NCBI GenBank assembly: GCA_031271685.1
Contig: JAISVH010000074.1
Span: 1-36,662, forward strand
Direction: 5' to 3'
Length of the DNA stretch: 36,662 nt
Origin: Eubacterium sp.
Lineage (GTDB): Bacteria; Bacillota; Clostridia; Oscillospirales; Ruminococcaceae
Shown here: positions 2,781-28,700 of the stretch, one piece after another
Numbering within the stretch: the stretch's first letter is position 1
Layout: each line of letters opens with the position of its first letter
Program-made: the position numbers and the translations under genes
Notes under the pieces: generated by a model
The model's database searches: none
The model's input: only the letters and a program-made list of their open reading frames with translations
Told to the model about the DNA's origin: nothing

Positions 2781-2885
2781 TTAAAACATCTGCGGCAGAG
2801 TCGCTTCCGATGTTTTCTAGTAAATTAAATATAGCGTGGGATTAAAAATCATCCGCCGCCTAAGAGGCAGGGATACGCAGTTATA
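2781..2885 (+). repeat. E repeat copy 2 (modules A, short B and D)
   Basis: It begins with ttaaaacatctgcggc (module A, hairpin gcggc..gtcgc), continues with a B-like gtgggattaaaaatcatccgcc and ends in a D module with the small hairpin GCCTaagAGGC. It lies between the pfp start and the pfp promoter, so it is transcribed in antisense as the pfp leader. Confidence 0.8.
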
Positions 2886-2890
2886 ATATA

Positions 2891-2919
2891 ATTATAGAAA
2901 GACAACCTGTTTTTGTCAA
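2891..2919 (-). promoter_or_regulatory. Consensus sigmaA-type promoter for pfp
   Basis: On the minus strand it reads TTGACA, 17 bases, TATAAT: both hexamers match the consensus exactly. The -10 is at 2891-2896 and the -35 at 2914-2919. Transcription would start near 2884, inside the D end of E repeat copy 2, and reach pfp at 2726. Confidence 0.85.
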
Positions 2920-2929
2920 GAAAATTTTT

Positions 2930-3060
2930 TCAAACATCTGCGGCGAATCCGATTCCGGTGTTTTATAATCCTTTAAATTTAATAAATTTAAAGTTAAACG
3001 ACTATAACAAGCGTCAGTGAGGGATTGAAAACCACCCGCTGCCTAAGAAACGCGGTTATA
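2930..3060 (+). repeat. E repeat copy 3 (modules A, C, B and D)
   Basis: Module A tcaaacatctgcggcga, then the AT-rich palindromic C module (ctttaaatttaataaatttaaag), a B module (gcgtcagtgagggattgaaaa) and a short D module ending cgcggttata. Its last base is 2 bp from the stop codon of the GGDEF-EAL gene. Confidence 0.8.
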
Positions 3061-3062
3061 CT

Positions 3063-5564
3063 TTACTGTTTTATAAAAGAAGAGACAACAGACGGCTCAT
3101 ACACTGACAAAAAGTCCATGAGTTCTGACGACGTTAAAGGTTTGCTTAATAGATAGCCCTGAAGATAATTTATATTAAAGGAGTTTAAAAGCCCAAGCTG
3201 CTCAGCATTTTCCACCCTTTTTACACAAACTCCGCCCGGTATGGTTTTTGAGAGCTTTATCACCGTTTCAAGCAGAATTTCGTCGTAATCGTCAAAGACG
3301 TTAGTAAACAATGAAAAATCTGTTTTTACCATATTTACATATGAGTATTTTAACAATTTTGGAGCGACAAAATCACGGCCAAAGCTGTCTATTATTATTT
3401 TTACACCGATTTCTTTAAGTTTTGCTATTACAGGTATGATATTGTCTCTTGTGTTCATCAACGTTCTTTCGGATATTTCGACATAAAGATATTCTCCGGA
3501 CAGTCCGCTTTTACGTAACGCCTCTTTGACCATGGATATGATTGCCCCCGATTGCAGTTCGCGCACGGTGATATTAACGCTTATCGAAAAATCCGGGTCT
3601 ATATGTTTTTGCATTTCCTTGCAAAACTCACAGGCGGAAGTTATGACCCATTTATCCAAACGGATGTCAAACCCTATATTTTCAGCTAATCTAACTATAT
3701 TTATAGGCCCAAGCGTATTGTTTTCCCCGCTCCAGTTAACAAACACCTCAAATGGACCGTAATTGCCGGTTTTAAGACTTATAACCGGCTGATACCTAAG
3801 GCTGAATCCGTTCATATGGTTATTAATGTCCATCCTTAGTTTTTCCGCAAAAAAATAGTCAACGCTCGCTGGCTTTTCAAATTCTTTTGAATAAAAAGCA
3901 TAGCTATTAACCCCATATTCAATAGAGCGGTACATTGACAGGGACGCCGCCCTGTATATTTCTTCGTTGTTTTTTCCGTTTTGGGGGTATAGGGTTACTC
4001 CTATCCCCGCCTCGAGATAGTGCTCGTTACCGTCCTGCTCCCAAGGTCTTTTAAAGCGGATAAGTAGCATTTCAGAAAATTTTTTGGCGGCTAAGGCATC
4101 GGCGTTGGAAAGCAAAACCGTTATAATGTTCCCCGAAAATCGATAAATTTTAATCGCCTCAACAGGCATAGAGGCAATATAATCAGTAACGCTTTTTATC
4201 AGCATGTCAGTATAGGAATGTCCGAAAAGTTCGTTAAAAGTCCTAAGATTGGTAACTTTTATATATACTACCGACCCTTCTTTTTGGGATATAAACTCTT
4301 CTCTTAAATCTATGTCAAGCTTAGCCCGATTGGGAACGTTTAAAGTCGGGTCATGGTAAGCCAGATAAGTCGCTTGACGCGAAGTCTCCTCAAGCATTTG
4401 ATCTGTTTTGTATTTTAGCAGAAGAGAAGATAATATTTGCGAGATTCTTATTAGTATTTTTACTTCCTGCGTGGTAGGTATGCGTTCAGAACCAAGCAAA
4501 GAGTAGGTGACAATCCCGCCTCGCCCTCCTTCCCCGCTTAAGTTTGCCGCGACATAATGACTAACGCCGAATTTATTAAACTCGTGTTTAAAGCCGCTTG
4601 GATAGTAATAGTCGGTGAAATCAAGGCGCTCTAATGTTATCGGGATATCATTATAGCTTATCTTTGGTTTTAGATCGCTTTTGAAGTCGCCGTTAGCCAT
4701 CCATTTAAAAAGTTCATAGAACATTTTTTCCTTTGAGTCTTCTTCAAAAATACTGATAGAGTCAACTTTTACATAGTTTCCGACAATTTTAAATACAGTG
4801 TTTATAATGTCGCTTGTGTTTTTGTTTCCGAAACTTTCGTTATAAACGCTGTTTATCAACATCTGCTGTTCTACGTTTTCGCTGAGCATTTTATTTGTAT
4901 GTTGCGAATTGGTCATTTCTTTATACAGTAAAACCAAAGAATTGACAACTCTTGAGAGAGTCAGCGACATAACATCCAACAATTGTTCATGCTTGTCTAT
5001 TATCTCTTTCTTATACGCGCCGATAATCCATTTGGCAATCACCATACGGTTTACGCGTATATTAGCCTCTTTTAAAAATGGAAATTTATTAATATTGAAA
5101 GAAGCTTCTTTAGAATTAGGCGTGCACAAAAGCTTTCCGTCGGCGTCAAAAATCGCGGAATAAATGCCGGCTCCAAATTTAAAAGGCATTTGAAGCTGCT
5201 CAAGATATTCGCGGTTGACAAGATCACAAATCTTTGGCTCGCCGGAATCGGGTAATATGAATCCCCAGCCTGAGACATCACTGATTGCCTTGTCAATATA
5301 CTTTGACACTTCTATCATAATACCGTCAAGATGGGTCCTAGTAGAAAGGATGTCTTTAAAATTTTGGGCACAAATCAAAAACCGGCGAATTTCCCCATCG
5401 AAATTTATCCGAAAATGAGTATAAAGCTCAGACGTGTTGCCGCTGGCAACTCCACGAATTTCTTCGGTAAGCTCGGGAAGATCTTCGGCAATGCAAAGCC
5501 ATTCAAGCGGTATTCTGATAGACTTTTCATTTACGATAGAAATATGAACGGTTAAATCCTTCAT
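3063..5564 (-). CDS. Large GGDEF-EAL protein with degenerate catalytic motifs
   Basis: An 833-residue protein. Residues about 1-390 are a long, probably sensory region with no recognised motif. A GGDEF-like domain starts near 403 (YHDPTLNVPNR), but the GGDEF position reads SGNII (about 475-479). An EAL-like domain follows (about 590-815): EAL is replaced by EVF (606-608), DD by DS (726-727), and Lys-Arg stands where AEG would give the catalytic Glu. The Asn of VNITV, the EISE motif and QGY remain. Both cyclase and phosphodiesterase activity are therefore doubtful; it may be a c-di-GMP receptor or act through protein contact. The ORF opens upstream at 5702, but the promoter at 5668-5696 lies downstream of that codon, and the ATG ending at 5564 has AAGGAT 7 bases upstream, so I chose it. 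No membrane segment is obvious. Confidence 0.85.
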   Translation of the reverse strand: MKDLTVHISIVNEKSIRIPLEWLCIAEDLPELTEEIRGVASGNTSELYTHFRINFDGEIRRFLICAQNFKDILSTRTHLDGIMIEVSKYIDKAISDVSGWGFILPDSGEPKICDLVNREYLEQLQMPFKFGAGIYSAIFDADGKLLCTPNSKEASFNINKFPFLKEANIRVNRMVIAKWIIGAYKKEIIDKHEQLLDVMSLTLSRVVNSLVLLYKEMTNSQHTNKMLSENVEQQMLINSVYNESFGNKNTSDIINTVFKIVGNYVKVDSISIFEEDSKEKMFYELFKWMANGDFKSDLKPKISYNDIPITLERLDFTDYYYPSGFKHEFNKFGVSHYVAANLSGEGGRGGIVTYSLLGSERIPTTQEVKILIRISQILSSLLLKYKTDQMLEETSRQATYLAYHDPTLNVPNRAKLDIDLREEFISQKEGSVVYIKVTNLRTFNELFGHSYTDMLIKSVTDYIASMPVEAIKIYRFSGNIITVLLSNADALAAKKFSEMLLIRFKRPWEQDGNEHYLEAGIGVTLYPQNGKNNEEIYRAASLSMYRSIEYGVNSYAFYSKEFEKPASVDYFFAEKLRMDINNHMNGFSLRYQPVISLKTGNYGPFEVFVNWSGENNTLGPINIVRLAENIGFDIRLDKWVITSACEFCKEMQKHIDPDFSISVNITVRELQSGAIISMVKEALRKSGLSGEYLYVEISERTLMNTRDNIIPVIAKLKEIGVKIIIDSFGRDFVAPKLLKYSYVNMVKTDFSLFTNVFDDYDEILLETVIKLSKTIPGGVCVKRVENAEQLGLLNSFNINYLQGYLLSKPLTSSELMDFLSVYEPSVVSSFIKQ

Positions 5565-5667
5565 AGATTCTATCCTTATCCTTAAAAACTTACTTTTTTG
5601 TATCAACAATTTATATTCTTCCAAAAAATGCACCGCCTCTAGCATTTCGATATGTAACGCTTGGTTA

Positions 5668-5696
5668 ATTATACTATATTTTTTTATGAAATACAA
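5668..5696 (-). promoter_or_regulatory. sigmaA-type promoter for the GGDEF-EAL gene
   Basis: Minus strand: TTGTAT (5691-5696), 17 bases, TATAAT (5668-5673). Transcription would begin near 5661 and leave a leader of about 97 bases before the ATG ending at 5564. It overlaps the first codons of the longest possible ORF, which argues against that start. Confidence 0.7.
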
Positions 5697-5850
5697 TAAC
5701 ATTTGTATATTTTATTCAAATTTGTGAAAAGTAGACAATTTTAATATGCTTTGGTTGTAAAAAAGCCCCGTAAAATAATCATATGCAAAAAGTGGACGAA
5801 CTAGTACTTTATTTTAAAATTATAGCAAATTGCTTAAACATGAAATCTAA

Positions 5851-5953
5851 TTCCATGCTGGCCACGTCAGCGGCGGGTGATTTTCAATCCTATCGCTAAT
5901 TTACTATAATGCTTGTTAAAACGCCGTAAGCGGCTCCGCCGCAGATGTTTGAA
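5851..5953 (-). repeat. E repeat copy 4, inverted orientation
   Basis: Read on the minus strand it begins ttcaaacatctgcggcgga (module A), passes a short tagtaaattagcgatagg joint and a B-half (gattgaaaatcacccgccgctgacg), and ends with a ...catggaa segment shared with copies 8 and 11. It occupies the gap between the divergent GGDEF-EAL and recJ genes, with its A end next to the recJ promoter. At 5758-5850 the rest of the gap shows only AT-rich sequence and a half copy of the AAAAGCCCCG motif. Confidence 0.75.
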
Positions 5954-5961
5954 TTGTTGTA

Positions 5962-5990
5962 TTGCGTTTTTTTCTATTAAATGTTATAAT
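5962..5990 (+). promoter_or_regulatory. sigmaA-type promoter for recJ
   Basis: TTGCGT (5962-5967), 17 bases, TATAAT (5985-5990). The predicted transcription start is about 24 bases before the recJ ATG, leaving room for the AAGGA ribosome site. Confidence 0.7.
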
Positions 5991-6020
5991 AAAATAATTA
6001 CATAATATAATAAGGACGAG

Positions 6021-8060
6021 ATGATGAAAAAATGGTCTTTAAATAATGAAAATTTAGCACATGTTTCATCGCTTTGCGATGAAACGCGTTTAAGCCGCCT
6101 TGTTTGCACAACATTAATCGGCAGGGGCATTTTAAACAAAAAAGACGCGGATTTGTTTTTGCCGGAACAGCCTTTATCCGATCCTTATCTCATCAAGGAC
6201 ATGGATAAAGCGGTAGAAATCATTGAAACGTCTCTTGAGATCGGCGAAAAGATAATGATTTTCGGCGACTATGACTGCGACGGAGTAGCAAGTACCGTTA
6301 TGTTGTTCAATTATCTTTCGGCGCTTGGTGGCGAGGTAGATTGGTATATACCATCTCGCAATGATGGATACGGTATGAGCGAGGCGTCAGTTCGAGAGCT
6401 GGCAAAAAAAGAAATAGGACTTATAATTACCGTGGATAACGGGATTTCGGCTTATACAGAAATAGAGCTTGCTAAAAAACTTGGAATGAAAGTTATTATT
6501 ACCGACCATCACAAAATGCCTGAGAAGCTTCCTTCCGCAGACGCGGTAATAAATCCGCACCGTGCCGACGACGAGTCAAATTTTAAAGAGCTTGCGGGTT
6601 GCGGGGTAGTGCTAAAGCTTATAATGGCTTTAGAACATGAAAATGAACAGGCTTTTGAACAGTTTGCCGATTTTGCCGCCATAGGCACGGTGGCTGATAT
6701 AGTTCCACTTTGCAGCGAAAATAGAACCATAGTAAAGCAGGGGATTTCCAGTATAAACGATACCGATAATATTGGTCTGCGCATGTTACTAAAGGCAAGC
6801 GGAGCGGCGGGACGACAGATTTCATCGACTTCTCTCGCTTTTACCCTGGCTCCTAGAATCAATGTGGCCGGACGTTTAGATCACGCCGAAAAATCGGTGG
6901 ATTTGTTTTTAAGCGAGAGTTACGGCCCTGCTGAGAGCAAAGCGATATTGCTTTGTGAGCTGAATGAAAAACGTCAGAAAATAGAAAATGATATCGTTGT
7001 TGCGGCGGAAAACTATCTTTCCGTCAATTCTGAAAGTTTTTTTGAACGGATACTAATCGTTTCCGGCAAGGGATGGCATCCAGGGGTTATAGGGATAGTA
7101 AGTTCGCGTCTTTTGCAGAAATATGATAAACCTTCTGTTGTAATATCCGTTGACGGTGAAATAGCCAGGGGGAGCGCCCGCAGCATCGATGGCTTTTCAA
7201 TATATGACGCGTTAAAATCATGTGCGAAACTGCTGACAAAATTCGGCGGGCATACAAAGGCCGCAGGATTTACAATGAGCTCTTCTGACTTGCCGGAGTT
7301 CTGCAAACTGCTTTATGCCTATGCAAAGAATAATTTCTGTGAAATGCCTAAAATACCGCTTTTTATAGATAAAGAGCTTTCTCCCGAGGACATAAATATT
7401 TGCGCGATTTCAGAGCTTTCCCTTCTTGAGCCATATGGAGAAGGCAATCCACAGCCGCTGTTTCTTATGAAAAAGTGCCTAATAATTTCAAAAAAGCCGC
7501 TTAAAGAAGGTAAATTCCTTTCTTTTACCGTGAGTTTTTCGGGAACAAACCAGGTAATACTTAATTTCAAAACATCATATAATGAATTTTGGTATGAGGA
7601 AGGCGATATGGTTGATATTGTCGTATCACTGGGAATAAATGAATATAACGGCGCAAAAAACATTCAAATTTTGGCAAAGGACGTGAGAAGACACGGATTT
7701 TTACAGGAACAATTTTTTGCCGCTTCAGACACGTTTGAAAAATTTCGCCGCGGGGAAGAAATCGACCAAAGACTCTATAAAAGAATAATGCCGGAATTAA
7801 AACACATAAAAGCGGTGTATGATATGCTTAAAACCAACAGCATTATTATGGCAACGGCAGATTTGGCGTTAAAGATGGGAATAAATTATTGTATGTTTTC
7901 GATCATACTTGACGTTTTAAGTGAGCTTAACCTTATTAAGTGCGACAGACTAAACAACAGTGCGGAGGTTTTGCCGTCGTCAGGCAAAGCCGATCTATCA
8001 AAATCGAAGTGGATAGCAAGACTTAAAGAGCAATGCGCGGGCAGACTTGCAGTTAATTAG
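6021..8060 (+). CDS. recJ: Single-stranded-DNA-specific exonuclease RecJ
   Basis: A 679-residue DHH-family 5'-3' single-strand DNA exonuclease of recombination and mismatch repair. Residues 83-88 are the metal-binding DYDCDG motif; DNG (139-141) and TDHH (161-164) complete the DHH domain. A DHHA1 domain follows with the characteristic FGGHTKAAGF motif. The C-terminal third holds the OB-fold-like region (FLSFTVSFSGTNQVILNFK) and a further tail to the end. Length is within the usual RecJ range. Two ATGs stand in tandem at 6021 and 6024; AAGGA just upstream suits either. It has its own promoter at 5962-5990. Downstream, a 180-bp MITE separates it from the (p)ppGpp synthetase gene; recJ followed by relA is a common Firmicute order. 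Confidence 0.95.
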   Translation: MMKKWSLNNENLAHVSSLCDETRLSRLVCTTLIGRGILNKKDADLFLPEQPLSDPYLIKDMDKAVEIIETSLEIGEKIMIFGDYDCDGVASTVMLFNYLSALGGEVDWYIPSRNDGYGMSEASVRELAKKEIGLIITVDNGISAYTEIELAKKLGMKVIITDHHKMPEKLPSADAVINPHRADDESNFKELAGCGVVLKLIMALEHENEQAFEQFADFAAIGTVADIVPLCSENRTIVKQGISSINDTDNIGLRMLLKASGAAGRQISSTSLAFTLAPRINVAGRLDHAEKSVDLFLSESYGPAESKAILLCELNEKRQKIENDIVVAAENYLSVNSESFFERILIVSGKGWHPGVIGIVSSRLLQKYDKPSVVISVDGEIARGSARSIDGFSIYDALKSCAKLLTKFGGHTKAAGFTMSSSDLPEFCKLLYAYAKNNFCEMPKIPLFIDKELSPEDINICAISELSLLEPYGEGNPQPLFLMKKCLIISKKPLKEGKFLSFTVSFSGTNQVILNFKTSYNEFWYEEGDMVDIVVSLGINEYNGAKNIQILAKDVRRHGFLQEQFFAASDTFEKFRRGEEIDQRLYKRIMPELKHIKAVYDMLKTNSIIMATADLALKMGINYCMFSIILDVLSELNLIKCDRLNNSAEVLPSSGKADLSKSKWIARLKEQCAGRLAVN

Positions 8061-8122
8061 CTTGGACAATACCAAAAGCAACAAAACAAAAACTTTTTAT
8101 CAAACGGTTTTTGTAGTTTATT

Positions 8123-8302
8123 TTAAGGTAATACCGAATAGTTCTCGCGTGCAAAGCGCACAGTCGGATTTTTCGTAAAACTAGGCAATTTTGCCGAGAA
8201 TATTTGTTGATATTTAAGGCGCGATTAACTAAGTTTGGCAAGAAATACGAAAGTGATTTGTGCGTCAAGCCGTTAAGCGTGAGTTGCGCAGTGTTGACTT
8301 AA
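8123..8302 (+). mobile_element. MITE-like element, full-length copy 1 (180 bp)
   Basis: It starts TTAAGGTAATACCG and ends CAGTGTTGACTTAA, imperfect terminal inverted repeats that both begin with TTAA. It aligns without gaps to the 180-bp copy at 16646-16825; the longest shared blocks include ggatttttcgtaaaactagg and aagccgttaagcgtgagttg. There is no transposase gene inside. No direct repeat beyond TTAA is visible outside. It lies 47 bp upstream of the relA-family start codon. Confidence 0.8.
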
Positions 8303-8349
8303 AGCCGATTTGCGCCGTGTCCGCTAAACGGTAATGGGGATAAAAGACT

Positions 8350-11243: not shown

Positions 11244-11350
11244 TTCAAACATCTGCGGAGAATCCTCTTCCAATATTTTAACAAACGTTAGCGGGGGATT
11301 TTTAATCCCCCCTCCGCCTAAGATACGGGGGACATAAACGCAATTCGATA
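11244..11350 (+). repeat. E repeat copy 5 (modules A, B and D)
   Basis: Module A ttcaaacatctgcggaga, then acaaacgttagcgggggattt and a D module ctccgcctaagatacggggg, ending near cataaacgcaattcgata. It lies 35 bp beyond the MBL-fold gene. Confidence 0.75.
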
Positions 11351-12073: not shown

Positions 12074-12148
12074 TTCAAACATCTGCGGCGGGGCCGATTT
12101 CAGTGTTTTATAATCGTTTAACTTTAAATTTAAAGTTAAAGGACTATA
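12074..12148 (+). repeat. E repeat copy 6 (modules A and C)
   Basis: ttcaaacatctgcggcggggccg (A) followed by the palindromic C module cgtttaactttaaatttaaagttaaa in two overlapping arms, ending ggactata. The last 13 bases overlap the 3' end of the MFS transporter gene and provide its stop codon. The 216-bp gap to its left (11858-12073) has no gene; it contains a degenerate MITE-end-like GTGCGGTGTCGGCTTA at about 11916. Confidence 0.75.
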
Positions 12149-13330: not shown

Positions 13331-13417
13331 ATTCATCTGCGGCGTAGCCGCTCCAGTGCTTTATATTCGTTATAGTAAATTAACGCCTAAGAAGAGGAGG
13401 ACATAAACGCGGTTATA
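13331..13417 (+). repeat. E repeat copy 7 (modules A and shortened D)
   Basis: attcatctgcggcgtagccgct (A), then ttcgttatagtaaattaac and a short D module cgcctaagaagaggagg ending cgcggttata. It lies immediately upstream of the MFS gene start, in antisense to it. Confidence 0.75.
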
Positions 13418-16212: not shown

Positions 16213-16313
16213 TTATAATGTTAGGGATTACGTTCATGTCCCCCTCCTTTAAAGCATCGGGTTCCATGCTGATACTTGTTAAAACAACGGAAGCGACTTA
16301 GCCGCAGATGTTC
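16213..16313 (-). repeat. E repeat copy 8, inverted orientation
   Basis: Read on the minus strand: aacatctgcggctaagtcgctt (A), gttttaacaagtatcagcatgg, a variant joint and a D end with gggggacatgaacgtaat. It fills the gap between the divergent DivIVA-like and ireB genes, its A end next to the ireB promoter. Confidence 0.7.
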
Positions 16314-16334
16314 TAAAAAAATGCAAAAAAGACC

Positions 16335-16645: not shown

Positions 16646-16825
16646 TTAAGGCAATATCGCACAGCTCTGGGGTACAAAGCACGCAGTAGGATTTTTCGTA
16701 AAACTAGGCAATTTTGCCGCGAATATCCGTTGGTATTTAAGGCAAAATTAACGAAGTTTGGCGAAAAATACGCAAGTGATTTGTGCGCCAAGCCGTTAAG
16801 CGTGAGTTGTGCGGTGTTGCCTTAA
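16646..16825 (+). mobile_element. MITE-like element, full-length copy 2 (180 bp)
   Basis: Starts TTAAGGCAATATCGCAC and ends GTGCGGTGTTGCCTTAA: 17-bp terminal inverted repeats with two mismatches. Length equals that of copy 1 exactly. An internal hairpin GGCAA-tt-TTGCC and an internal TTTAAGGC are also shared. It begins 2 bp after the ireB stop codon and encodes no protein. Confidence 0.85.
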
Positions 16826-16886
16826 ATATGTTTTTATTTTCTAAAATTTTCAAGTTATAAAAACTGTAAATAAAACAATAATATTG

Positions 16887-21490: not shown

Positions 21491-21522
21491 CGATGTATTT
21501 GTGCCTTTCTACAACTTATTTT

Positions 21523-21705
21523 TTCAAACATCTGCGGCAAAGCCGCTTACGGTGTTTTAACAAGCATTATAGCAAATTAACTATAGCGGGGGATTGAAAA
21601 TCAAACGTCGCTGACGTATAGCCGTTTAACTTTAAATTTGATAAATTAAATTTAAATGATTATAACCCGCCGCCTAAGATGCGGGGGGACATAAACGCGA
21701 TTATA
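21523..21705 (+). repeat. E repeat copy 9, longest form (A, joint, B, C, D; 183 bp)
   Basis: Ordered modules: A ttcaaacatctgcggcaaagcc; joint acaagcattatagcaaattaac; B gcgggggattgaaaatcaaa; C ccgtttaactttaaatttg with its mirror arm; D ccgccgcctaagatgcgggg ending cgcgattata. This copy shows most modules together and defines the full extent of the element. No terminal inverted repeats and no obvious target duplication are visible. Confidence 0.85.
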
Positions 21706-21712
21706 GAAAATT

Positions 21713-21745: not shown

Positions 21746-21790
21746 TCGCCGTCCAACAACTAAATTAGCTGCTGTAAAAAACCAAAACAT

Positions 21791-23191
21791 TTAGAAACCA
21801 AAATAGTTTTTTGTATTGTAATAAGATATATCCGACACTATTTTAGATAATTTTGACATATCATCCGGATATTCGCCGTTTTCTACCCATTCGCCGATAA
21901 GATTGCACAAAATTCTCCTGAAATACTCGTGGCGCGGATATGAAAGAAAGCTTCTTGAATCGGTTAGCATACCGACGAATCCCGCAAGAAAGCCTTCGTT
22001 TGCGAGCGAAATCATCTGTTCGCGCATTCCGGAGTTGTGGTCATTGAACCACCAAGCCGATCCGTGCTGTATTTTGTTAACGCAGCTTCCGTCCTGAAAG
22101 CATCCGGCGATAGTGTCTATAGCCGCGTTATCGTTTGGGTTAAGACTGTAAATAATAGTTTTAGGCAATGCCCTTTCTTTTGAAAGCGAACCCAAAAAAT
22201 CAGCCATAAGTGATGACGGCGCGTAATTATTTATACAGTCATAGCCTGTATCCGGCCCTAAAATCTCAAATTGCAGCGGATTATTATTGCGTTTGCAACC
22301 ATAATGGAGCTGCATTACCCACCCCATTTTACTGTATTCGCGCGCGCAGAAAAGCATAAAAGCAGTTTTATATCGTCTTATTTCAAGCTCGCTAATCTCT
22401 CCTCCTTTTAATCGCTTAGTTAAAATCTCGTTTATTTCTTCGTCGGAGGCCGGGAGGTAATCAACATACTCCAGCGCATGGTCTGAAACGCAGCAGCCCA
22501 TAGAAGCAAAAAATTCCATTCGATTTTTAACTGCTGATTTAAGATCGCCAAGGTTTTTAATGTCTATCCCGCTTTTTTCTGAGAGTTTTTCTATATAATC
22601 GATAAATTCAGGATTTTCGGCGTTCATGATCTTATCGGGCCGCCATGCAGGCAAAACTCTTACATCAAAGCTTTTGTCCTCGGCGATAGACTTATGCCAT
22701 TCAAGAGTGTCCACAGGGTCGTCGGTAGTGCAAATAACCCGAACATTGCTTTTTTTAATAAGATTTTTTACCGACATATCGGGGGATTTAAGCTTATCGT
22801 TGCAAAGGCTCCAAACCTCTTCCGCGGTTTCGCCGGACAGTACGCCGTGATAACCGAAATAACGCTGAAGCTCAAGGTGCGTCCAATGAAAAACGGGATT
22901 GCCTATGCACCGCGAGATGGTCTCGGCATATTTTTGAAATTTTTCACGGTCAGAGCCATCCCCGGTTATGTATTTTTCATCCACCCCAGCCGCGCGCATC
23001 AGGCGCCACTTGTAATGATCTCCGCCCAACCAAACAGACGTGATATTTTCGAATTTTTTGTCGTTTGCGATTTCGGCAGGATTGATGTGACAGTGGTAGT
23101 CAATGATCGGTAAGGTTTTTGCACAGCCGTGAAACAATTTTACGGCCACGTCGGTGTTAAGCATAAAATTTTCGTTCATGAATTCTTTCAT
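21791..23191 (-). CDS. uxaC: Glucuronate/galacturonate isomerase
   Basis: A 466-residue UxaC-family uronate isomerase, which converts D-galacturonate to D-tagaturonate (and D-glucuronate to D-fructuronate), the first step of the isomerase pathway. The metal-binding HCHI of LPIIDYHCHINPAEI, GGDHYKWRLMRAAG, VICTTDDPVDTLEWH and MQLHYGCKRNNN are family motifs; the length is usual. GGAGG lies 6 bases before the ATG. It is divergent from uxaB, with its own promoter at 23389-23417 and a leader of about 190 bases, and ends at a terminator. As uxaB and uxaA follow and no fructuronate reductase gene is seen, galacturonate is the likely main substrate. Confidence 0.96.
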   Translation of the reverse strand: MKEFMNENFMLNTDVAVKLFHGCAKTLPIIDYHCHINPAEIANDKKFENITSVWLGGDHYKWRLMRAAGVDEKYITGDGSDREKFQKYAETISRCIGNPVFHWTHLELQRYFGYHGVLSGETAEEVWSLCNDKLKSPDMSVKNLIKKSNVRVICTTDDPVDTLEWHKSIAEDKSFDVRVLPAWRPDKIMNAENPEFIDYIEKLSEKSGIDIKNLGDLKSAVKNRMEFFASMGCCVSDHALEYVDYLPASDEEINEILTKRLKGGEISELEIRRYKTAFMLFCAREYSKMGWVMQLHYGCKRNNNPLQFEILGPDTGYDCINNYAPSSLMADFLGSLSKERALPKTIIYSLNPNDNAAIDTIAGCFQDGSCVNKIQHGSAWWFNDHNSGMREQMISLANEGFLAGFVGMLTDSRSFLSYPRHEYFRRILCNLIGEWVENGEYPDDMSKLSKIVSDISYYNTKNYFGF

Positions 23192-23230
23192 ATGACGCCT
23201 CCTAAATATCTTTTATTTTTATAATACATA

Positions 23231-23370
23231 TGTTTTAACAAGCGTTATAGTAAATTAAGGCAACACCGCATGATATTTTGCATTATTATTTTTTGTGTTT
23301 TATAAGTTAATTAACTAATAGTCAGCATGTAACCCGCCGACTAAGAGACGGGGGCATAAACACGATTATA
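23231..23370 (+). repeat. E repeat copy 10, split by an X-type segment
   Basis: The tail of module A (tgttttaacaagcgttatagt) is joined to TTAAGGCAACACCGCA, a MITE end, at 23255; an AT-rich segment (X1, to about 23325) follows and then a D module (aacccgccgactaagag ... cacgattata). The order suggests an insertion of X into an E copy. The copy lies in the uxaC leader, read in antisense. Confidence 0.7.
23255..23325 (+). repeat. X repeat copy 1, MITE-end-like segment inside E copy 10
   Basis: Starts ttaaggcaacaccgcatgat and ends tataagttaattaactaata. Both ends recur at 27422-27526 (X copy 2), with a different centre. The left end equals the MITE terminal repeat, but the right end does not, so it may be a broken or separate element. 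Confidence 0.5.
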
Positions 23371-23388
23371 TTATACACCATTTATTAT

Positions 23389-23417
23389 ATTATACAACCT
23401 TGTCTCAGTTAAATCAA
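23389..23417 (-). promoter_or_regulatory. sigmaA-type promoter for uxaC
   Basis: Minus strand: TTGATT (23412-23417), 17 bases, TATAAT (23389-23394). Transcription would start near 23382 and cross E repeat copy 10 before uxaC at 23191. Confidence 0.75.
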
Positions 23418-23468
23418 TAGAGTTTGTTAAAATTTAATAAAATTTTTTTTATTTTTTAGCTATAATAC

Positions 23469-23497
23469 TTGACTTAGTTAAAAACAAGTAGTATAAT
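23469..23497 (+). promoter_or_regulatory. sigmaA-type promoter for uxaB
   Basis: TTGACT (23469-23474), 17 bases, TATAAT (23492-23497). Transcription would start near 23504, giving a leader of about 93 bases. The -35 boxes of the uxaC and uxaB promoters are 51 bp apart, so a shared regulator could act on the AT-rich stretch between them. Confidence 0.85.
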
Positions 23498-23596
23498 ATA
23501 TCACAGGTGTATGTAAAAAATAACCAGTATTTGTTGCCATGAATATTAAAAATTGTTTATTTAAGCAATTCCCATTAAATTCTCGGGAGGTTAACA

Positions 23597-25057
23597 GTGA
23601 CAAATATAGCAAATATGAATATCGAAAAGAGAAATTACCCGATCAAGGCCGTCCAGTTCGGCGAGGGTAATTTTCTACGTGGCTTTGTAGACTACATGAT
23701 CGACATACTCAACGAAAAAAAACGTTGGGACGGAAGCGTTACGCTTCTTCAACCAATAGAGTTTGGCAGTCTTGACCATTTTAAAACGCAAAACTGCCTT
23801 TATACGGTATTTTTAAGAGGACTGGAAAGCGGCACCGAAAAGATTGAAAAGCGTGTGATCACCTGTTGCAACGAGGCAGTCTCATGCATTAAGGATTATG
23901 AGCGATATGCTGCTTTAGCAAAGCTAGACACACTAAGATTCGTCATCTCAAACACGACTGAAGCCGGAATAGTATACGACGGTTCCTGCCTGCTTTCCGA
24001 CCGCCCTCCAAAGTCATATCCGGCAAAACTTGCAAAGTTTTTATATGAACGTTATACATATTTTAACGGTGATATAAACAAGGGGATTATTGTTCTGCCC
24101 GTTGAGCTTATTGACGACAACGGCATTGAACTTAAAAGAATAGTAAAGCTTCACGTATACGACTGGAAATTAGGAGATGAGTTTGAGTCATGGTTGGACC
24201 GCGCCTGCGTATTTGCTTCGACTTTGGTTGACCGTATCGTTACCGGTTATCCAAAAGAAGAAGCCGAGGTTTTTGCCGAGCTTGGCTATGAAGATAAACT
24301 GTTGGTGACGGGAGAGCCTTTTGCCCTTTGGGTGATTGAGGCAGATCGTGACATAAGCGATGAAATCCCGTTTGACAAGGCGGGATTGCCGGTTATATTC
24401 ACCGATAATCAAAAGCCGTATAAGCAACGCAAAGTGCGAATCCTTAACGGAGCTCACACCAGTTTTGTGTTGGCATCTTTTCTTGCCGGAAATGATTTTG
24501 TTGGTCAGTCTATGGACGACGAGCTGATTTTCAAATTCATGCGCGACACTATATTTGATGAAGTTATTCCCACTTTAGACCTCCCCAAAGAAGATCTTAT
24601 AGAATTTGCCAACGCAGTTATCGATAGGTTTAAAAACCCCTTTATCAAGCATGCGCTGCTTTCTATTTCACTGAATAGCATATCAAAATGGCGTGCGCGG
24701 TGTTTGCCGAGTCTTATGGTTTATCTTGAGCGGAAAGGCGAATTACCTGCTCATTTGACGTTTTCACTGGCGGCTAATATCGCTTTCTATAACGGCAACG
24801 AAATAAAAGACGGTATTTTGATCGGCAACCGAAATGGCGAACCATATAACATTCAAGACGATAAAGCGGTTCTTGAATTTTTCGCAAAAAACTCAAGCCT
24901 TTCTTCACGAGAGATTGCGGAGCTGTTTTTAGGGAATGAAGAGTTTTTTGGCGAGGATTTAAATCGTTTGCCAGGTCTCACTGATAAGGTAACAGATTGT
25001 TTGTCTGAAATACGCTCAAATGGTATGCGGACGGCATTGGAAAAATATTTTAAATGA
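23597..25057 (+). CDS. uxaB: Tagaturonate reductase (altronate oxidoreductase)
   Basis: A 486-residue NAD-dependent mannitol-dehydrogenase-family enzyme that reduces D-tagaturonate to D-altronate. VQFGEGNFLRGFVDYMID at the N terminus is the nucleotide-binding segment; VISNTTEAGI and RKVRILNGAHTSFV are the family's conserved motifs, the last with the catalytic Lys and Asn-His region. The length matches UxaB. The start is GTG, with GGGAGG 6 bases upstream; the first ATG in frame is 12 codons later but lacks such a site. Divergent from uxaC and probably first in the plus-strand uronate series, though 585 bp packed with repeats separate it from uxaA. Confidence 0.94.
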   Translation: MTNIANMNIEKRNYPIKAVQFGEGNFLRGFVDYMIDILNEKKRWDGSVTLLQPIEFGSLDHFKTQNCLYTVFLRGLESGTEKIEKRVITCCNEAVSCIKDYERYAALAKLDTLRFVISNTTEAGIVYDGSCLLSDRPPKSYPAKLAKFLYERYTYFNGDINKGIIVLPVELIDDNGIELKRIVKLHVYDWKLGDEFESWLDRACVFASTLVDRIVTGYPKEEAEVFAELGYEDKLLVTGEPFALWVIEADRDISDEIPFDKAGLPVIFTDNQKPYKQRKVRILNGAHTSFVLASFLAGNDFVGQSMDDELIFKFMRDTIFDEVIPTLDLPKEDLIEFANAVIDRFKNPFIKHALLSISLNSISKWRARCLPSLMVYLERKGELPAHLTFSLAANIAFYNGNEIKDGILIGNRNGEPYNIQDDKAVLEFFAKNSSLSSREIAELFLGNEEFFGEDLNRLPGLTDKVTDCLSEIRSNGMRTALEKYFK

Positions 25058-25131
25058 GTTATAGGTTAGAAATCAGGAGTCGTTATGTCCACCTCAGCAA
25101 TGGTTAAAATATTTTTATAGCAAGCTTATTT

Positions 25132-25222
25132 TTAAGGCAACACCGCACAATTCACGCTTAACGGCTTGGTGCATAAATCACTTGCGGATTTTGCACGCCA
25201 GAACTTTGCGGTATTGCCTTAA
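25132..25222 (-). mobile_element. MITE-like element, internally deleted copy 3 (91 bp)
   Basis: TTAAGGCAACACCGCA and TGCGGTATTGCCTTAA bound it, giving near-perfect terminal repeats. Read on the minus strand, the first 33 and last 58 bases match the ends of the 180-bp copies, and about 89 bp of the centre are missing. It lies 74 bp beyond uxaB. Confidence 0.8.
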
Positions 25223-25248
25223 CAGTACAAAAAGCTACGCAAAACCGA

Positions 25249-25343
25249 TTCAAACATACTCGATGGAGCTGCTTTCGGTGTTCTAACAAGCGTCAGCTGA
25301 CGTAGTCGACATGGAACCCTTCGGGGACATGAATGCGGTTATA
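25249..25343 (+). repeat. E repeat copy 11 (A, shortened B, variant D)
   Basis: ttcaaacatactcgatggagc (diverged A), ttctaacaagcgtcagctgac, then tggaacccttcggggacatg and gaatgcggttata. The ...catggaaccc segment is shared with copies 4 and 8. Confidence 0.7.
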
Positions 25344-25502
25344 ACGCTTACAAGCTTTAAGGTTTGCTCGATTGTCGGCGGTTTTTCTTACGTTAACAGT
25401 CGTGTGACTATTGTTAGATCAGCCTTTTGCGTCGTTTTTCAGAATGTTTTATGAAATAGGTTTGCTATAGCTCATTATTGATGACTCCTAACTACTAACT
25501 AA
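25344..25502. other. Non-coding stretch between E repeat copies 11 and 12
   Basis: No gene or promoter is evident. A bulged hairpin, TAACAGTC with GACTATTGTTA around 25395-25417, is the only structure I see. With MITE copy 3 and E copies 11 and 12 it makes up the 585-bp gap between uxaB and uxaA. Confidence 0.4.
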
Positions 25503-25625
25503 TTCAAACATCTGCGGCGTAGCCGCTTCAAGTGTTTTAACAAACGTTAGCGGGGGATTGAAAATCACCTGCCACTGACGTATAATCCGCCGCCTAAGGG
25601 TCTGGGGGTCATGGACGCGGTTGTG
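25503..25625 (+). repeat. E repeat copy 12 (modules A, B and D)
   Basis: ttcaaacatctgcggcgtagcc (A, perfect GCGGC..GCCGC hairpin), acaaacgttagcgggggattg (B) with its right arm, and D ccgccgcctaagggtctggg ending gacgcggttgt. Its end is 6 bp before the uxaA ribosome site. Confidence 0.82.
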
Positions 25626-25642
25626 TATTAGGGAGTTTGATT

Positions 25643-27130
25643 ATGAAGGTTATTAAAATTAACGGCGGAGATAATGTCGTTGTTGCCGCAGAGCCTATCC
25701 CAAAGGACACGGTGATTACGGTTGACGGCTTGAAAGTCAAAGTCTTAGGAGATATACCCGCCGGCCATAAAATAGCGGTTGAAAATATATCCGTTGGCGC
25801 AAATGTTATAAAATACGGCGAGCGTATAGGATTTGCCGGCAAAGATATAAAAATTGGCGATTGGGTGCATGTACATAACTTAAAAACCACCCTAAGCGGA
25901 AAGATCGAATATTCATATGACCCAGTGAAAATAAAAGAAACATCCCGATCTCCGGCAGTTTTTAAAGGATTTTTGCGCGAAAACGGCAGTGTTGGGGTTC
26001 GTAATGAAATTTGGATCATTCCAACGGTCGGGTGTGTTAACGGCATAGCCGAAACGCTTCAAAAATTTGGGGAAGCCGAATCTGTCAAAAAGGCTGATAT
26101 TGACGCCGCCGTGGCTTTTCCTCATCCTTACGGGTGTTCACAGTTGGGATATGACCAGGAAACGACCCGTGTTATTTTGGCGGATCTTATCAATCACCCC
26201 AATGCCGGCGCCGTGTTGGTTGTGGGATTAGGCTGTGAAAACAGCGGCGTTAATGTACTAAAAGACTATATCGGCCAATATAATCCCGATAGAGTAAAGT
26301 TTTTAATAACTCAGGATTTTGATGATGAAATTGCCGAAGGAAAAAAGCTTTTAGTCGAGCTTATTGAATATGCTTCTAAAGCTGAACGCACGGAGATTTC
26401 CGCTTCTAAGCTTATAATCGGACTTAAGTGCGGCGGCTCCGACGGATTTTCGGGCATAACCGCCAACCCCACTGTAGGTGCGTTTTCGGATCTATTGGTT
26501 TCAATGGGAGGAACCACCATACTTACAGAGGTTCCCGAAATGTTTGGCGCAGAACAAATTTTAATGAACCGCGCTAAAAATGAAAAAATCTATGGCCAAA
26601 TAGTTGATTTGATAAACGACTTTAAAGAATATTATGAAAAATCGGGGATGCCGATTTATGAAAACCCATCGCCCGGAAATAAAGACGGCGGCATTTCCAC
26701 GCTTGAAGATAAATCGCTTGGATGTACCCAAAAATCGGGCAGTTCTCCGGTTTGCGGAGTGTTGGGTTATGGAGATAAAGCGAGTGATTCCGGGCTTAAC
26801 CTGCTTAGCGCTCCTGGCAACGACCTTGTTGCGGCTACCGCTTTAGCCGCGTCCGGAGCACAAATTGTGCTATTCACTACCGGACGAGGCACTCCTTTCG
26901 CTTCACCGGTGCCTACAGTGAAAATTTCAAGCAATACCGCTCTTTTTAAAAGAAAATCCGGTTGGATCGATTTTAATGCCGGTTATGCCGTAGACGGGAC
27001 TAAAACAATAGATGAGCTTGGCGCTGACTTGCTTGAGTTTGTTCTGAAAATTGCAAACGGAAAATCGGTGAAAAGCGAGGAAATGGGACTACACGATATG
27101 GCTATATTTAAAACCGGGGTGACTTTGTAA
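25643..27130 (+). CDS. uxaA: Altronate dehydratase
   Basis: A 495-residue UxaA-family enzyme that dehydrates D-altronate to 2-keto-3-deoxygluconate. The N-terminal SAF domain (about 1-90, with VAAEPIPKDTVITVDG and GDWVHVHNLKT) is followed by the large catalytic part: GYGCSQ-like PYGCSQLGYD, GLGCENSGVN, LKCGGSDGFSGITANPTVG and EVPEMFGAE; conserved Cys residues fit the iron-dependent site. I set the start at ATG 25643, as GGGAG lies 7 bases upstream, in place of an in-frame TTG six bases earlier. It follows uxaB at 585 bp, its upstream end in E repeat copy 12, and precedes eda by 451 bp. Confidence 0.95.
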   Translation: MKVIKINGGDNVVVAAEPIPKDTVITVDGLKVKVLGDIPAGHKIAVENISVGANVIKYGERIGFAGKDIKIGDWVHVHNLKTTLSGKIEYSYDPVKIKETSRSPAVFKGFLRENGSVGVRNEIWIIPTVGCVNGIAETLQKFGEAESVKKADIDAAVAFPHPYGCSQLGYDQETTRVILADLINHPNAGAVLVVGLGCENSGVNVLKDYIGQYNPDRVKFLITQDFDDEIAEGKKLLVELIEYASKAERTEISASKLIIGLKCGGSDGFSGITANPTVGAFSDLLVSMGGTTILTEVPEMFGAEQILMNRAKNEKIYGQIVDLINDFKEYYEKSGMPIYENPSPGNKDGGISTLEDKSLGCTQKSGSSPVCGVLGYGDKASDSGLNLLSAPGNDLVAATALAASGAQIVLFTTGRGTPFASPVPTVKISSNTALFKRKSGWIDFNAGYAVDGTKTIDELGADLLEFVLKIANGKSVKSEEMGLHDMAIFKTGVTL

Positions 27131-27143
27131 TAAAATCACGGTT

Positions 27144-27245
27144 ATCAGGCTACCTACAGGATTGCTAAACCGGCGACAATCATGCATTTCCGCAGTATTA
27201 CTGCGGTTTGCTCAACCTTAGGCACCTTTGTTGTGTTTGCCTGAT
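27144..27245 (+). ncRNA. Candidate structured RNA element or complex terminator after uxaA
   Basis: An outer stem ATCAGGC (27144-27150) and GCCTGAT (27239-27245) encloses a perfect inner hairpin CCGCAGTA-t-TACTGCGG (27190-27206) and further partly complementary arms (AGGATTGCTAAACC with GGTTTGCTCAACCT). TTGATTCTTTTT follows, as after a terminator. I match it to no known riboswitch. It might end uxaA transcription or be a small RNA. Confidence 0.35.
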
Positions 27246-27307
27246 CTTGATTCTTTTTAAAACGATGATATTTTAAAATATGATCCAGCGATAAGGTTAT
27301 TTAAATA

Positions 27308-27398
27308 TTCAAACATCTGCGGCGGAACCTCTTCCGGTGTTTTAACAAACGTCAGCGGGGATTGAAAATCACCCGCCGTTGACGTATAGCAAATTAAC
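27308..27398 (+). repeat. E repeat copy 13 (modules A and B)
   Basis: ttcaaacatctgcggcggaacc (A), acaaacgtcagcggggattg (B) with the mirror arm caccc..gccgttgacgta, and a tail atagcaaattaac. It lacks C and D modules. Between it and eda lies X repeat copy 2. Confidence 0.8.
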
Positions 27399-27421
27399 TC
27401 GAAAACAAGCAAAATTAATTT

Positions 27422-27526
27422 CAGCAAAACCGCATGGTATTTTGCAGTAAATCCGCTTGTGCAGATTAACTGCAACTTTCGTGTTATTATCCTTGATATT
27501 TTCTAAGTTAATTACCTATAAATCAG
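27422..27526 (+). repeat. X repeat copy 2
   Basis: Begins gcaaaaccgcatggtatttt and ends ctaagttaattacctataaatcag, sharing both ends with X copy 1 in E copy 10; a short hairpin ttaactgc/gcagattaa region fills the middle. The distance from its end to the eda start is about 55 bp. Confidence 0.45.
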
Positions 27527-27581
27527 TTTAATTATCCGCGTAAGCGGAGTTTTGCAATATATTAAAGTAAAGGAGAGTAAA

Positions 27582-28541
27582 ATGACAATTATTGAAGAAA
27601 TTTCAAAAATAGGAATAGTTCCAGTTATAGCGTTGGAAGACGCTAAAGACGCCAAACCTCTGGCGAAATCCCTTTGCGACGGAGGTCTTCCCTGTGCCGA
27701 GGTAACTTTTAGGACTGCCGCAGCTGAAGAGAGCATAAAAATCATGACTTCAGAATTTCCACAGATGTTGGTGGGCGCCGGCACGGTTCTTACTACAGAG
27801 CAGGTTGACCGGGCGGTGAAAGCGGGCGCTAAATTTATCGTCAGCCCGGGACTTAATCCTAAAATCGTAAAATATTGCTTAGATAAGGGTGTTGCTGTCG
27901 CGCCCGGATGCGCTAACCCTTCTGACGTTGAGCAGGCGATAGAATTAGGCCTGAAAACAGTAAAATTCTTTCCGGCCGAGCAGGCGGGAGGACTTAGTAT
28001 GATAAAAGCTATGGCCGCGCCTTACACGCAAATGACTTTTATGCCTACCGGAGGGATCAATGCAAAAAATCTTTTGGATTATCTTAACTTTAATAAAATT
28101 TTAGCTTGTGGCGGTAGCTGGATGGTATCAAAAGATATGATATCCGCCGGTGAGTTCGACAAGATAACCGCTCTTACCCGCGAAGCGGTTGACCTTATGT
28201 TGGGCTTTAATCTTGCGCATGTGGGGATAAATGAGATAGACCCCGAAAATGCGCTTTCTGCGGCTGTAAACTTTGAAAACCTATTTGGATTTTCTAAAAA
28301 AGACGGTAATTCTTCTGTTTTTGCAGGAAAATATGTCGAGGTCATGAAATCGCCTTATCTCGGCAAAAACGGACATTTGGCCATCGGCACTAATTTTATA
28401 GATCGCGCTGTATATCATCTTGAAAAACGCGGTGTTAAATTTGATAAAAGCACTGAGAAAAGAGATCCAAAAGGCGCTTTAAAAGCTGTTTATCTTGAGA
28501 ATGAGATAGGCGGATTTGCTATTCATCTCGTTCAGAAATAG
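27582..28541 (+). CDS. eda: KDPG aldolase with C-terminal VOC-like domain
   Basis: A 319-residue protein. Residues about 1-205 are a bifunctional KHG/KDPG aldolase: GIVPVIAL, AEVTFRTAAAEE with the catalytic Glu, LVGAGTVL, the Schiff-base Lys in KFFPAEQAGG, and FMPTGGI. It splits 2-keto-3-deoxy-6-phosphogluconate to pyruvate and glyceraldehyde 3-phosphate. The typical enzyme ends near 210, but here about 105 residues follow (HVGINEIDPENAL, HLAIGTNFIDRAVYHLEKRG, GGFAIHLVQK) with the pattern of a vicinal-oxygen-chelate (glyoxalase-like) domain. Such fusions occur in Clostridia and their role is not known to me. The start is the ATG at 27582, with AAAGGAGA upstream; an in-frame TTG lies ten codons earlier. 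Confidence 0.9.
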   Translation: MTIIEEISKIGIVPVIALEDAKDAKPLAKSLCDGGLPCAEVTFRTAAAEESIKIMTSEFPQMLVGAGTVLTTEQVDRAVKAGAKFIVSPGLNPKIVKYCLDKGVAVAPGCANPSDVEQAIELGLKTVKFFPAEQAGGLSMIKAMAAPYTQMTFMPTGGINAKNLLDYLNFNKILACGGSWMVSKDMISAGEFDKITALTREAVDLMLGFNLAHVGINEIDPENALSAAVNFENLFGFSKKDGNSSVFAGKYVEVMKSPYLGKNGHLAIGTNFIDRAVYHLEKRGVKFDKSTEKRDPKGALKAVYLENEIGGFAIHLVQK

Positions 28542-28565
28542 TTTTAGAAGAACGAAAAGCAAGCA

Positions 28566-28700
28566 TTTAAAAATCTGCGGCGGAGCCGCTTCCTATGTTT
28601 TATAATCGTTTAACTTAAAATTTAATAAATTTTAAGTTAAACGGGTATAACAAGCGTCAGCGATGATTGAAAATCACCCGCCGCTGATGTATAGTAAATC
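28566..28700 (+). repeat. E repeat copy 14 (modules A, C and B)
   Basis: tttaaaaatctgcggcggagcc (A), the full C palindrome cgtttaacttaaaatttaat with mirror arm taaattttaagttaaacg, then caagcgtcagcgatgattga (B) and its arm cacccgccgctgatg. There is no D module. It fills the 222-bp eda-kdgK gap. Confidence 0.82.

What the first reader, a model, noticed from the sequence alone, without database searches (positions are those of the whole stretch)
2781..28700. A modular, hairpin-rich intergenic repeat family (E), about 14 copies in 36.7 kb
The copies are built from the same short modules in varying selections: A (ttcaaacatctgcggc with a GCGGC..GCCGC hairpin), C (a 40-bp AT-rich palindrome with gtttaac arms), B (cgtcagcgggggattgaaaa with its mirror arm) and D (ccgccgcctaa ... 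cataaacgcggttata). Copies start at 1, 2781, 2930, 5851, 11244, 12074, 13331, 16213, 21523, 23231, 25249, 25503, 27308 and 28566. They have no terminal inverted repeats, transposase or reading frame. The mosaic layout recalls BOX elements of pneumococcus, but the sequences are unrelated as far as I can tell. Each module is a folded unit, which suggests selection or mobility at the RNA or single-strand DNA level.
Basis: partly seen in the sequence, partly recalled or inferred. Interest (0 to 1): 0.8.

Follow-up and report, generated by a model that had tools for sequence, protein, structure and literature searches.

The report
Clostridia-wide folded mobile DNA element family
Small folded DNA elements that carry no genes have spread between the genes of this bacterium and, in related forms, through many of its relatives, probably by borrowing the enzyme of a single-strand DNA transposon.

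Summary
E is a genome-wide intergenic repeat: 115 exact copies of its 16-nt head, reversed control 0; 140 copies in 770 kb, 132 intergenic. Ends are sharp. Shorter forms look like deletions between short repeats; palindrome C is a separate insert.

Relatives with the same fold but different letters occur patchily in the order (25 of 394 genomes) and class (46 of 391). Pairs covary between species (31 double changes, 9.0 shuffled), not among this genome's copies (2, 4.2 shuffled): the master's fold is selected, inserted copies decay.

No target duplication was seen; the terminal TATA pre-exists at the clearest nested empty site. Copies oppose the GC-skew leading strand (42:14 here, 13:2 in relative G019).

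In G019, E's end (TAAC plus hairpin P4) matches the left end of an IS605-type transposon there (0 of 5210 windows as high). Best reading: a PATE-like non-autonomous element moved through single-stranded DNA by an IS605-type transposase in trans. This genome has no such transposase left, and most carriers tested lack it too.

The parts
1..62 (+). E copy: half of insert C plus 3' hairpin D
   Evidence: by eye; D12 and D6; not in the nhmmer lists
2781..2885 (+). E copy, A..B'..D
   Evidence: nhmmer 2783-2884
2929..3060 (+). E copy, A, insert C, B', D
   Evidence: nhmmer 2930-3055
5852..5953 (-). E copy, A and B, 3' part degenerate
   Evidence: nhmmer
11244..11348 (+). E copy, A..D near full length
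   Evidence: nhmmer 11244-11344
12074..12147 (+). E copy, A plus insert C only
   Evidence: nhmmer 12075-12111
13331..13417 (+). E copy, A..D degenerate
   Evidence: nhmmer 13333-13416
16225..16316 (-). E copy, A..D degenerate
   Evidence: nhmmer 16230-16313
21523..21705 (+). E copy, A, B, insert C, D
   Evidence: nhmmer 21524-21615 and 21657-21704
23231..23370 (+). E copy lacking hairpin A, interrupted by other repeat sequence; D at 23305-23369
   Evidence: no E module seen in the gap of relative G063
25249..25343 (+). E copy, degenerate A and D
   Evidence: nhmmer
25503..25625 (+). E copy, A, B, D
   Evidence: nhmmer 25503-25622
27308..27400 (+). E copy, A and B, 3' end fused to another repeat
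   Evidence: nhmmer
28566..28700 (+). E copy, A, insert C, B
   Evidence: nhmmer 28569-28602 and 28644-28687

Best explanation
E is a non-autonomous transposable element of about 100-150 nt recognised as a fold of single-stranded DNA. The top strand reads: optional leader hairpin(s) starting TTCAA; a closing stem P1 edged by AAC..GTT; inner hairpins P2, P3, P4; then GTTATA. Read on the other strand it sits directly 3' of TATAAC, with P4 as its left-end hairpin, and ends ..TTGAA. This is the layout of IS200/IS605-type elements. An IS605-type Y1 transposase supplied in trans would recognise the fold, exposed on the lagging-strand template, cut at the two ends that P1 brings together, and insert 3' of a TAAC-type target without duplication. 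Inserted copies then decay and lose modules by slippage between short repeats at hairpins. Shown: ends, copy number, intergenic placement, no duplication signal, strand bias, between-species covariation, one orthologous empty site, and likeness of E's end to an IS605-type left end in G019. Inferred: the single-strand intermediate, trans mobilisation and that enzyme.
For: Sharp ends with no conserved flank (71 left and 51 right ends). No duplication signal in 43 copies from relatives (best of 208 position pairs z 2.9). Nested insertion L040 in repeat H: eight uninterrupted H copies carry GTTATA at the junction; L334 against L032 has TATA. Orientation against the GC-skew leading strand 42:14 here, 13:2 in G019, 65:28 in 770 kb (p 1.6e-4); intergenic GTTATA outside E is balanced, 40:48 and 13:14. 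DNA fold of the consensus z -3.47. Between-species covariation. Patchy multicopy spread. G019 copies 97% identical on average; six G392 copies 94.6-98.5% with different flanks. G019 has one Y1 gene, an IS605-type tnpA beside a broken tnpB; its left end aligns with G019's E from TAACTT through P4, score 38, 0 of 300 shuffles and 0 of 5210 genome windows as high. In relatives of this tnpA, 11 of 20 loci read (10 distinct) show T[TC]AAC shortly before the left hairpin (by eye). G392 holds a fragment of the same tnpA type (22 aa, 86%).
Against: No Y1 transposase in this genome (93% complete). Any Y1: 8 of 18 carriers and 5 of 19 non-carriers. IS605-type: only G019 and, as a fragment, G392; the other Y1 genes are IS200-type or, in G348, also RAYT-like, and the IS200 ends seen do not match E. 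The left-end match was noticed after the fact and is weaker for other E types (1-30 of 5210 windows as high, 0-3 of 300 shuffles; this genome's own consensus 30 of 5210). E's other end does not resemble that IS605's right end (by eye). Strand bias is absent where neighbouring genes oppose replication (7:6) or converge (7:6). The TTCAA motif is itself biased (108:76, 104:60). Only one nested site is clear, with a 1-nt mismatch at the join; L327 against L043 is ambiguous and two further hits are low complexity. P1 joins the two ends, unlike the separate end hairpins of IS200/IS605.
Confidence: 0.64

Rival explanations
1. RNA route: E is a transcribed structured RNA copied back into DNA by a reverse transcriptase and inserted at breaks. 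The conserved P4 and stems are RNA features.
For: Between-species covariation fits RNA as well as single-stranded DNA. Some relatives' loci read as 5'-truncated copies with an intact 3' end: L146, L206, L224 (by eye, not counted systematically).
Against: In this genome 39 copies keep only the 5' end against 17 with only the 3' end. RNA fold of the canonical consensus z -1.28, of the long form -2.24. Strand bias, TATA target and likeness to an IS605 left end fit a DNA route better. No search for reverse transcriptases was made.
Confidence: 0.1
2. Ordinary MITE: a DNA transposon derivative moved by a DDE transposase through its short inverted ends, P1.
For: 30 distinct P1 pairs score 5 or more (86 distinct cores examined), giving inverted ends of 5-9 bp plus AAC/GTT.
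Against: P1 sequence differs between species while pairing is kept. Swapped stems score 1.9 against 6.4 for own stems (the 21 stems compared were pre-selected for score). No duplication signal. DDE transposases were not searched for.
Confidence: 0.11
3. Host-selected regulatory or terminator element, retained for a function at each site.
For: Intergenic placement; hairpin A resembles a terminator stem followed by T-rich sequence (by eye).
Against: Pairs are not conserved between copies within the genome. The family's exact head is absent from 59 relatives and the two sites compared are not shared. Mixed gene context: neighbours read against E on both sides 33, with E 17, divergent 13, convergent 8.
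Confidence: 0.07
4. Spread by recombination or slippage of older repeats without any dedicated recombinase.
For: Repeats share modules and fuse to one another; fold-back A-A' and D-D' palindromes occur; in G030 E lies inside a larger repeat that has itself been copied.
Against: Exact ends in unrelated flanks and near-identical copies in G019 and G392 need a specific insertion step.
Confidence: 0.08

Closest known systems
PATEs, palindrome-associated transposable elements of Haloquadratum (PMC3119063, passages read)
   Same: Near-terminal palindromes, no target duplication, a conserved terminal oligonucleotide that is the target, similarity to IS605-type ends, core deletions between direct repeats, frequent hits by small palindromic inserts, related IS200-type transposases mostly broken
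   Different: Only one end matches an IS605-type element here, and only in a relative. P1 ties the two ends into one closed fold. The family spans many genera of a bacterial class.
REPINs and REP sequences with RAYT/TnpA-REP (PMC3116915, PMC6006769, passages read)
   Same: Many intergenic palindromic copies, non-autonomous, compensatory changes in the hairpin, proposed single-strand transposition
   Different: Not an inverted doublet with a GTAG foot; no RAYT in this genome. The one RAYT-like gene seen (G348, L273; below the NCBIfam cut-off) has no E-like motif beside it.
CGTC-tagged REPs (PMC3733652, passages read)
   Same: Palindromic, high copy, no dedicated transposase known
   Different: Those are 20-40 bp hairpins with a CGTC foot. 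E is larger and branched. CGTC occurs in the canonical E of this genome and in the leader of the G019 type, not at a hairpin's foot throughout.
BOX elements of pneumococcus (PMC3049150, passages read)
   Same: Modular composite intergenic repeats with folded modules and variable make-up
   Different: The paper relates BOX mobility to inverted ends like those of ISSpn2; its boxB is tandem. In E the variation looks like deletions from one long form plus inserts.
Integron attC sites (recalled, not tested against a source)
   Same: AAC..GTT edges with an internal loop and a variable branched top, acting as a folded single strand
   Different: The right core GTTATA does not fit the recalled GTTRRRY, and the element ends do not match cassette joints.

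Membership tests
IS200/IS605-derived PATE | No target-site duplication | tested here: met
   No correlated flank positions in 43 copies; nested site L040
IS200/IS605-derived PATE | Conserved short target kept once at one end | tested here: met
   GTTATA already in eight empty H copies, TATA in L032; rests on few sites
IS200/IS605-derived PATE | Two separate near-terminal hairpins and no terminal inverted repeat | tested here: inconclusive
   Hairpins A and D lie near the ends, but P1 pairs the core's ends with each other
IS200/IS605-derived PATE | One end matches the left end of an IS605-type element in a related genome | tested here: met
   G019: 0 of 300 shuffles, 0 of 5210 windows as high; weaker for seven other E sequences; noticed after the fact
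IS200/IS605-derived PATE | The other end matches that element's right end | tested here: inconclusive
   No likeness seen by eye; no scored comparison was made
IS200/IS605-derived PATE | Matching transposase in the same genome | tested here: not met
   No PF01797 gene in this genome, 93% complete; no tnpA or tnpB match in the 770 kb and other loci of this genome in hand
IS200/IS605-type mechanism | Insertion biased to the lagging-strand template | tested here: met
   42:14 and 13:2 against the GC-skew leading strand; no bias in two gene contexts, 7:6 each
REP/REPIN | GTAG-like tetranucleotide at the hairpin foot | tested here: inconclusive
   None at the ends of this genome's copies; GTAG stands just inside the 3' end in some relatives (L130, L199, L236), not at a hairpin's 5' foot
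REP/REPIN | RAYT gene flanked by the repeat | tested here: not met
   No PF01797 gene in the own genome; no E copy or convincing motif in the Y1 loci examined, not all of the 26 fetched
MITE | Target-site duplication | tested here: not met
MITE | Terminal inverted repeats shared with a DDE-type IS | not tested
   DDE elements were not searched
BOX | boxA/boxB/boxC sequences | not tested
   BOX sequences were not fetched; only the layout was compared

The most novel reading that the evidence does not exclude
E belongs to an undescribed, Clostridia-wide class of single-strand mobile element in which both ends and their cut sites are held together in one branched fold by a stem (P1) conserved only as pairing. 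It persists across many genera by borrowing passing transposases through a near-invariant docking hairpin, P4 (CCGCC..AGAGGCGGGGGACAT), and outlives them, as in this genome; the enzyme in most carriers may be one not yet recognised.
Probability: 0.35. Interest if true: 0.8.

Novelty: new variant of a known kind. Interest (0 to 1): 0.65.

Why it matters
In this genome about 140 copies of roughly 100 nt in 770 kb make up near 2% of the sequence and perhaps a tenth of its noncoding DNA (my estimate). A single structure-conserved superfamily spread over 69 distinct sampled genomes (weak single hits included), without a match at Rfam's thresholds in the window and not found in our paper searches, would extend PATE/REPIN-type single-strand transposition in Clostridia. 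Its species-variable but paired stem lets co-evolution of a fold and its recognition be read directly from genomes, and G019 offers a candidate enzyme to test.

Tried and rejected
Chance or window-only repeats: rejected. Rfam: none at gathering in the window; at E up to 0.1 in seven relatives' loci only a BjrC80 match far below its cut-off. Phage origin: 21 viral stretches with the 16-mer, one match each, about what chance gives (my estimate); the P4 pattern gave 2 viral stretches, not followed. Plasmids: no match. Autonomous copy: solitary 5' and 3' ends within 6 kb gave five pairs, not pursued; seven loci whose D lacks the usual upstream showed no evident shared gene and read mostly as truncated. 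IS200-type Y1 as mobiliser: not supported. In one search only six of ten loci parsed; the four missed were read, which is how the IS605-type gene of G019 came to light. Y2 transposase: 0 of 37, but the control genomes were silent too, so uninformative. Cross-species empty sites among loci then in hand: none. (a viral locus against phages) was a stray query, no match, not used. Literature: searches turned up no description of this family; the held library lacks most subscription papers. PMC8040213 passages list palindromic RNA candidates in microbiomes, not compared by sequence. A first report draft said that no IS end matched E; changed that. I therefore raised the best reading from 0.58 to 0.64, trimmed the rivals, and dropped the bolder claim that the enzyme lies outside the Y1 transposases.

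Full report
What is there. The window is contig 139 (bases 1-36662) of a 2.26-Mb draft genome. The 80 record titles listed for relatives of the repeat name Oscillospiraceae, Ruminococcus, Clostridiales, Eubacterium and other Clostridia, some with gut sources in the title. The 20 window proteins scanned are housekeeping or uncharacterised (phosphofructokinase, RecJ, RelA/SpoT, fumarase, sigma factors, hexuronate catabolism); none matched a transposase family. The genes from 28764 on were not scanned.

The repeat. Its head TTCAAACATCTGCGGC occurs 115 times in this genome (55 forward, 60 reverse; reversed control 0) and in none of 59 other genomes, 35 of the same genus. The canonical form is 104 nt. 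nhmmer found 84 hits, 41 near full length, in 414 kb, and 140 merged copies in 770 kb, 132 of them intergenic; the coding fraction, measured on the first 414 kb, was 0.86. Both ends are abrupt: TT at the left in 70 of 71, GCGGTTATA at the right, near-background letters beyond. Full-length copies average 87% identity to the consensus, range 69-95% (57 copies), so the family is old here.

Why it looks modular. The longest form (L046:617-764) reads A, B with both arms, a TTAATTAA palindrome, then D. The common 104-nt form equals a deletion between the two CCCGCCGC repeats; the form GCGTCAGCATGGAACCC equals a deletion between the two GTCAGC repeats. This is read from the sequences; slippage at hairpins is inference. 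Fold-back palindromes of either end occur: A-A' (L030:2218, L036:1667, L045:11320) and D-D' (L042:10883). Module C interrupts E at two different places.

Structure. The consensus folds as DNA with z -3.47 and as RNA with z -1.28; the long form -3.62 and -2.24. Three other copies fold less well as DNA (z -0.97, -1.57, -1.89). Among 24 copies of this genome the pairs show no covariation: 2 double changes against 4.2 in shuffles. The fold is not maintained copy by copy.

Relatives. Model R1 over 71 genomes of the genus, own included, matched this genome (56 scored) and G009 once (L051). L051 has the same layout but a different hairpin A (GGGGCaacGCCCC). Searching with L051 matched 10 of 71, own included. 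P1 differs in sequence but keeps pairing, e.g. AGACACCGG/CCGGTGTCT, GCGACTTG/CAAGTCGC, TTGTCATG/CATGACAA (86 distinct cores, 30 distinct pairs scoring 5 or more; many of the rest look truncated or mis-assigned). Own stems score 6.4 against 1.9 when swapped, but those were pre-selected, so this illustrates rather than tests. On alignment A2 (19 relatives' cores, mostly chosen for a clear P1, plus this genome's long form) the AAC/GTT edge, P3 and P4 give 31 double changes against 9.0 shuffled, 0 of 500 shuffles as high; all lie in P3. P4 and GTTATA barely vary. Model R2 matched 25 of 394 genomes of the order (18 of 167 genera) and 46 of 391 of the class (35 of 220 genera); two genomes are in both lists, so 69 are distinct. 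At most 9 candidates per genome were scored, so copy numbers are lower bounds, and weak single hits may be chance.

Mobility. G019 copies are 97% identical on average (17 full copies) with different flanks; six G392 copies are 94.6-98.5% identical. A G019 copy (L284:4544-4685) lies in a short gap between two genes. Of 13 relatives' regions fetched, 11 aligned on both sides; 9 had a projected gap of -12 to 3 nt, 2 had 65-75 nt of other sequence, 2 could not be aligned. For the window, the 23191-23597 gap shows no E module in G063, the closest relative seen for that region (the intergenic alignment is poor).

Target. No pair of flank positions correlates as a duplication would (43 copies). Of 79 full copies tested for nested sites, E in L040 interrupts repeat H, and eight uninterrupted H copies carry GTTATA once at the junction, with a 1-nt mismatch on the left; L334 against L032 has TATA; L327 against L043 is ambiguous; two hits were low complexity. 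So the terminal TATA most likely belongs to the target. The last letters vary in relatives (GTTATA, GTTATT, GTTACA).

Strand bias. Taking positive GC skew to mark the leading strand (general knowledge, not shown for this genome), E's top strand opposes it in 42 of 56 copies (p 2e-4; 21 of 77 left out for |skew| up to 0.03) and in 13 of 15 in G019 (p 0.007; 6 of 21 left out), and in 65 of 93 in the larger sample (47 of 140 left out; p 1.6e-4). Intergenic GTTATA outside E is balanced; TTCAA is biased the same way but less (0.59, 0.63). By context: genes with leading 38:11, divergent 12:4, convergent 7:6, genes against leading 7:6. Replication and gene direction are not fully separated. The strand that carries the target would lie on the lagging-strand template, as reported for IS608 and ISDra2 (PMC6006769, passages).

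Mobiliser. Y1 transposase PF01797 is absent here, present in 8 of 18 carriers and 5 of 19 non-carriers (carriers by model R2 or the DNA search). Most are IS200-type, whose ends differ from E (six loci); G348 has a RAYT-like gene. G019's gene is different: an IS605-type tnpA (NF033573) followed by a tnpB broken by a stop. Its left side reads TTTTAAC then a hairpin GTCCCCTACCTCTAAGGTGGGGG. G019's own E, read on the bottom strand, is TATAAC then GTCCCCCGCCTCTAAGGCGGCGG. They align with score 38; none of 300 dinucleotide shuffles and none of 5210 windows of G019 reach it. Seven other E sequences score 26-32, with 0-3 of 300 shuffles and 1-30 of 5210 windows as high; this genome's consensus has 0 and 30. 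The match was noticed late, after a failed parse, so it is post hoc. Of 24 viral-contig relatives of this tnpA, 20 upstream regions were read and 11 (10 distinct) show T[TC]AAC shortly before the left hairpin (by eye). G392 has a 22-aa fragment 86% identical to this tnpA. No other carrier tested has this type. The right end does not match by eye. In 770 kb and other loci of this genome no tnpA or tnpB match was found. DDE, serine and tyrosine recombinases were not searched.

Verdict. A real, class-wide, structure-conserved mobile element family, seen here as an old, decaying lineage-specific expansion. It works like PATEs, with an IS605-type transposase as the best candidate; full membership is not shown because the matching enzyme is missing here and only one end matches.

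Noticed in passing
window 8123-8303, 16646-16826, 25128-25222: A second repeat family with inverted ends TTAAGGCAAYACCGC..GCGGTATTGCCTTAA, MITE-like; a copy also sits directly beside E at L041:16007.
   Followed up: no
window 1317-1410: A very degenerate A-like start (TTTTAAACATCTGTGGC) with an inverted match to 5818-5859, possibly a fifteenth E remnant.
   Followed up: no
L042:10883 and L030:2218, L036:1667, L045:11320: Near-perfect fold-back palindromes of single element ends (D-D' and A-A'), suggesting snap-back copying at hairpins.
   Followed up: partly
L343-L350 (G030): In G030 the E-like element lies inside a larger repeat of about 320 nt that has itself been copied, with a shared right flank TTGACCTTTTTCTACAGAC.
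   Followed up: no
L128 (CALXBK): The leader hairpin unit TTCAATAAGGGGCTTGCCCCGTCA is present twice in tandem, while L165 and L185 lack it.
   Followed up: no
L031:15594, L073, L088, L096: E copies repeatedly abut the same repeat (starting about TATAGTCAGTCAATTTAAAAAC) on the right, as if its end were a preferred target.
   Followed up: no
E cores, e.g. L165:6509, L185:4286, L284: The inner left edge TTCAAC/TTTAAC on the top strand equals the T[TC]AAC seen before IS605-type left ends, so both strands of E carry a target-like motif; which strand is cut is open.
   Followed up: no
L236, L237: Two viral contigs carry the element, L237 twice; possible vehicles between hosts.
   Followed up: no
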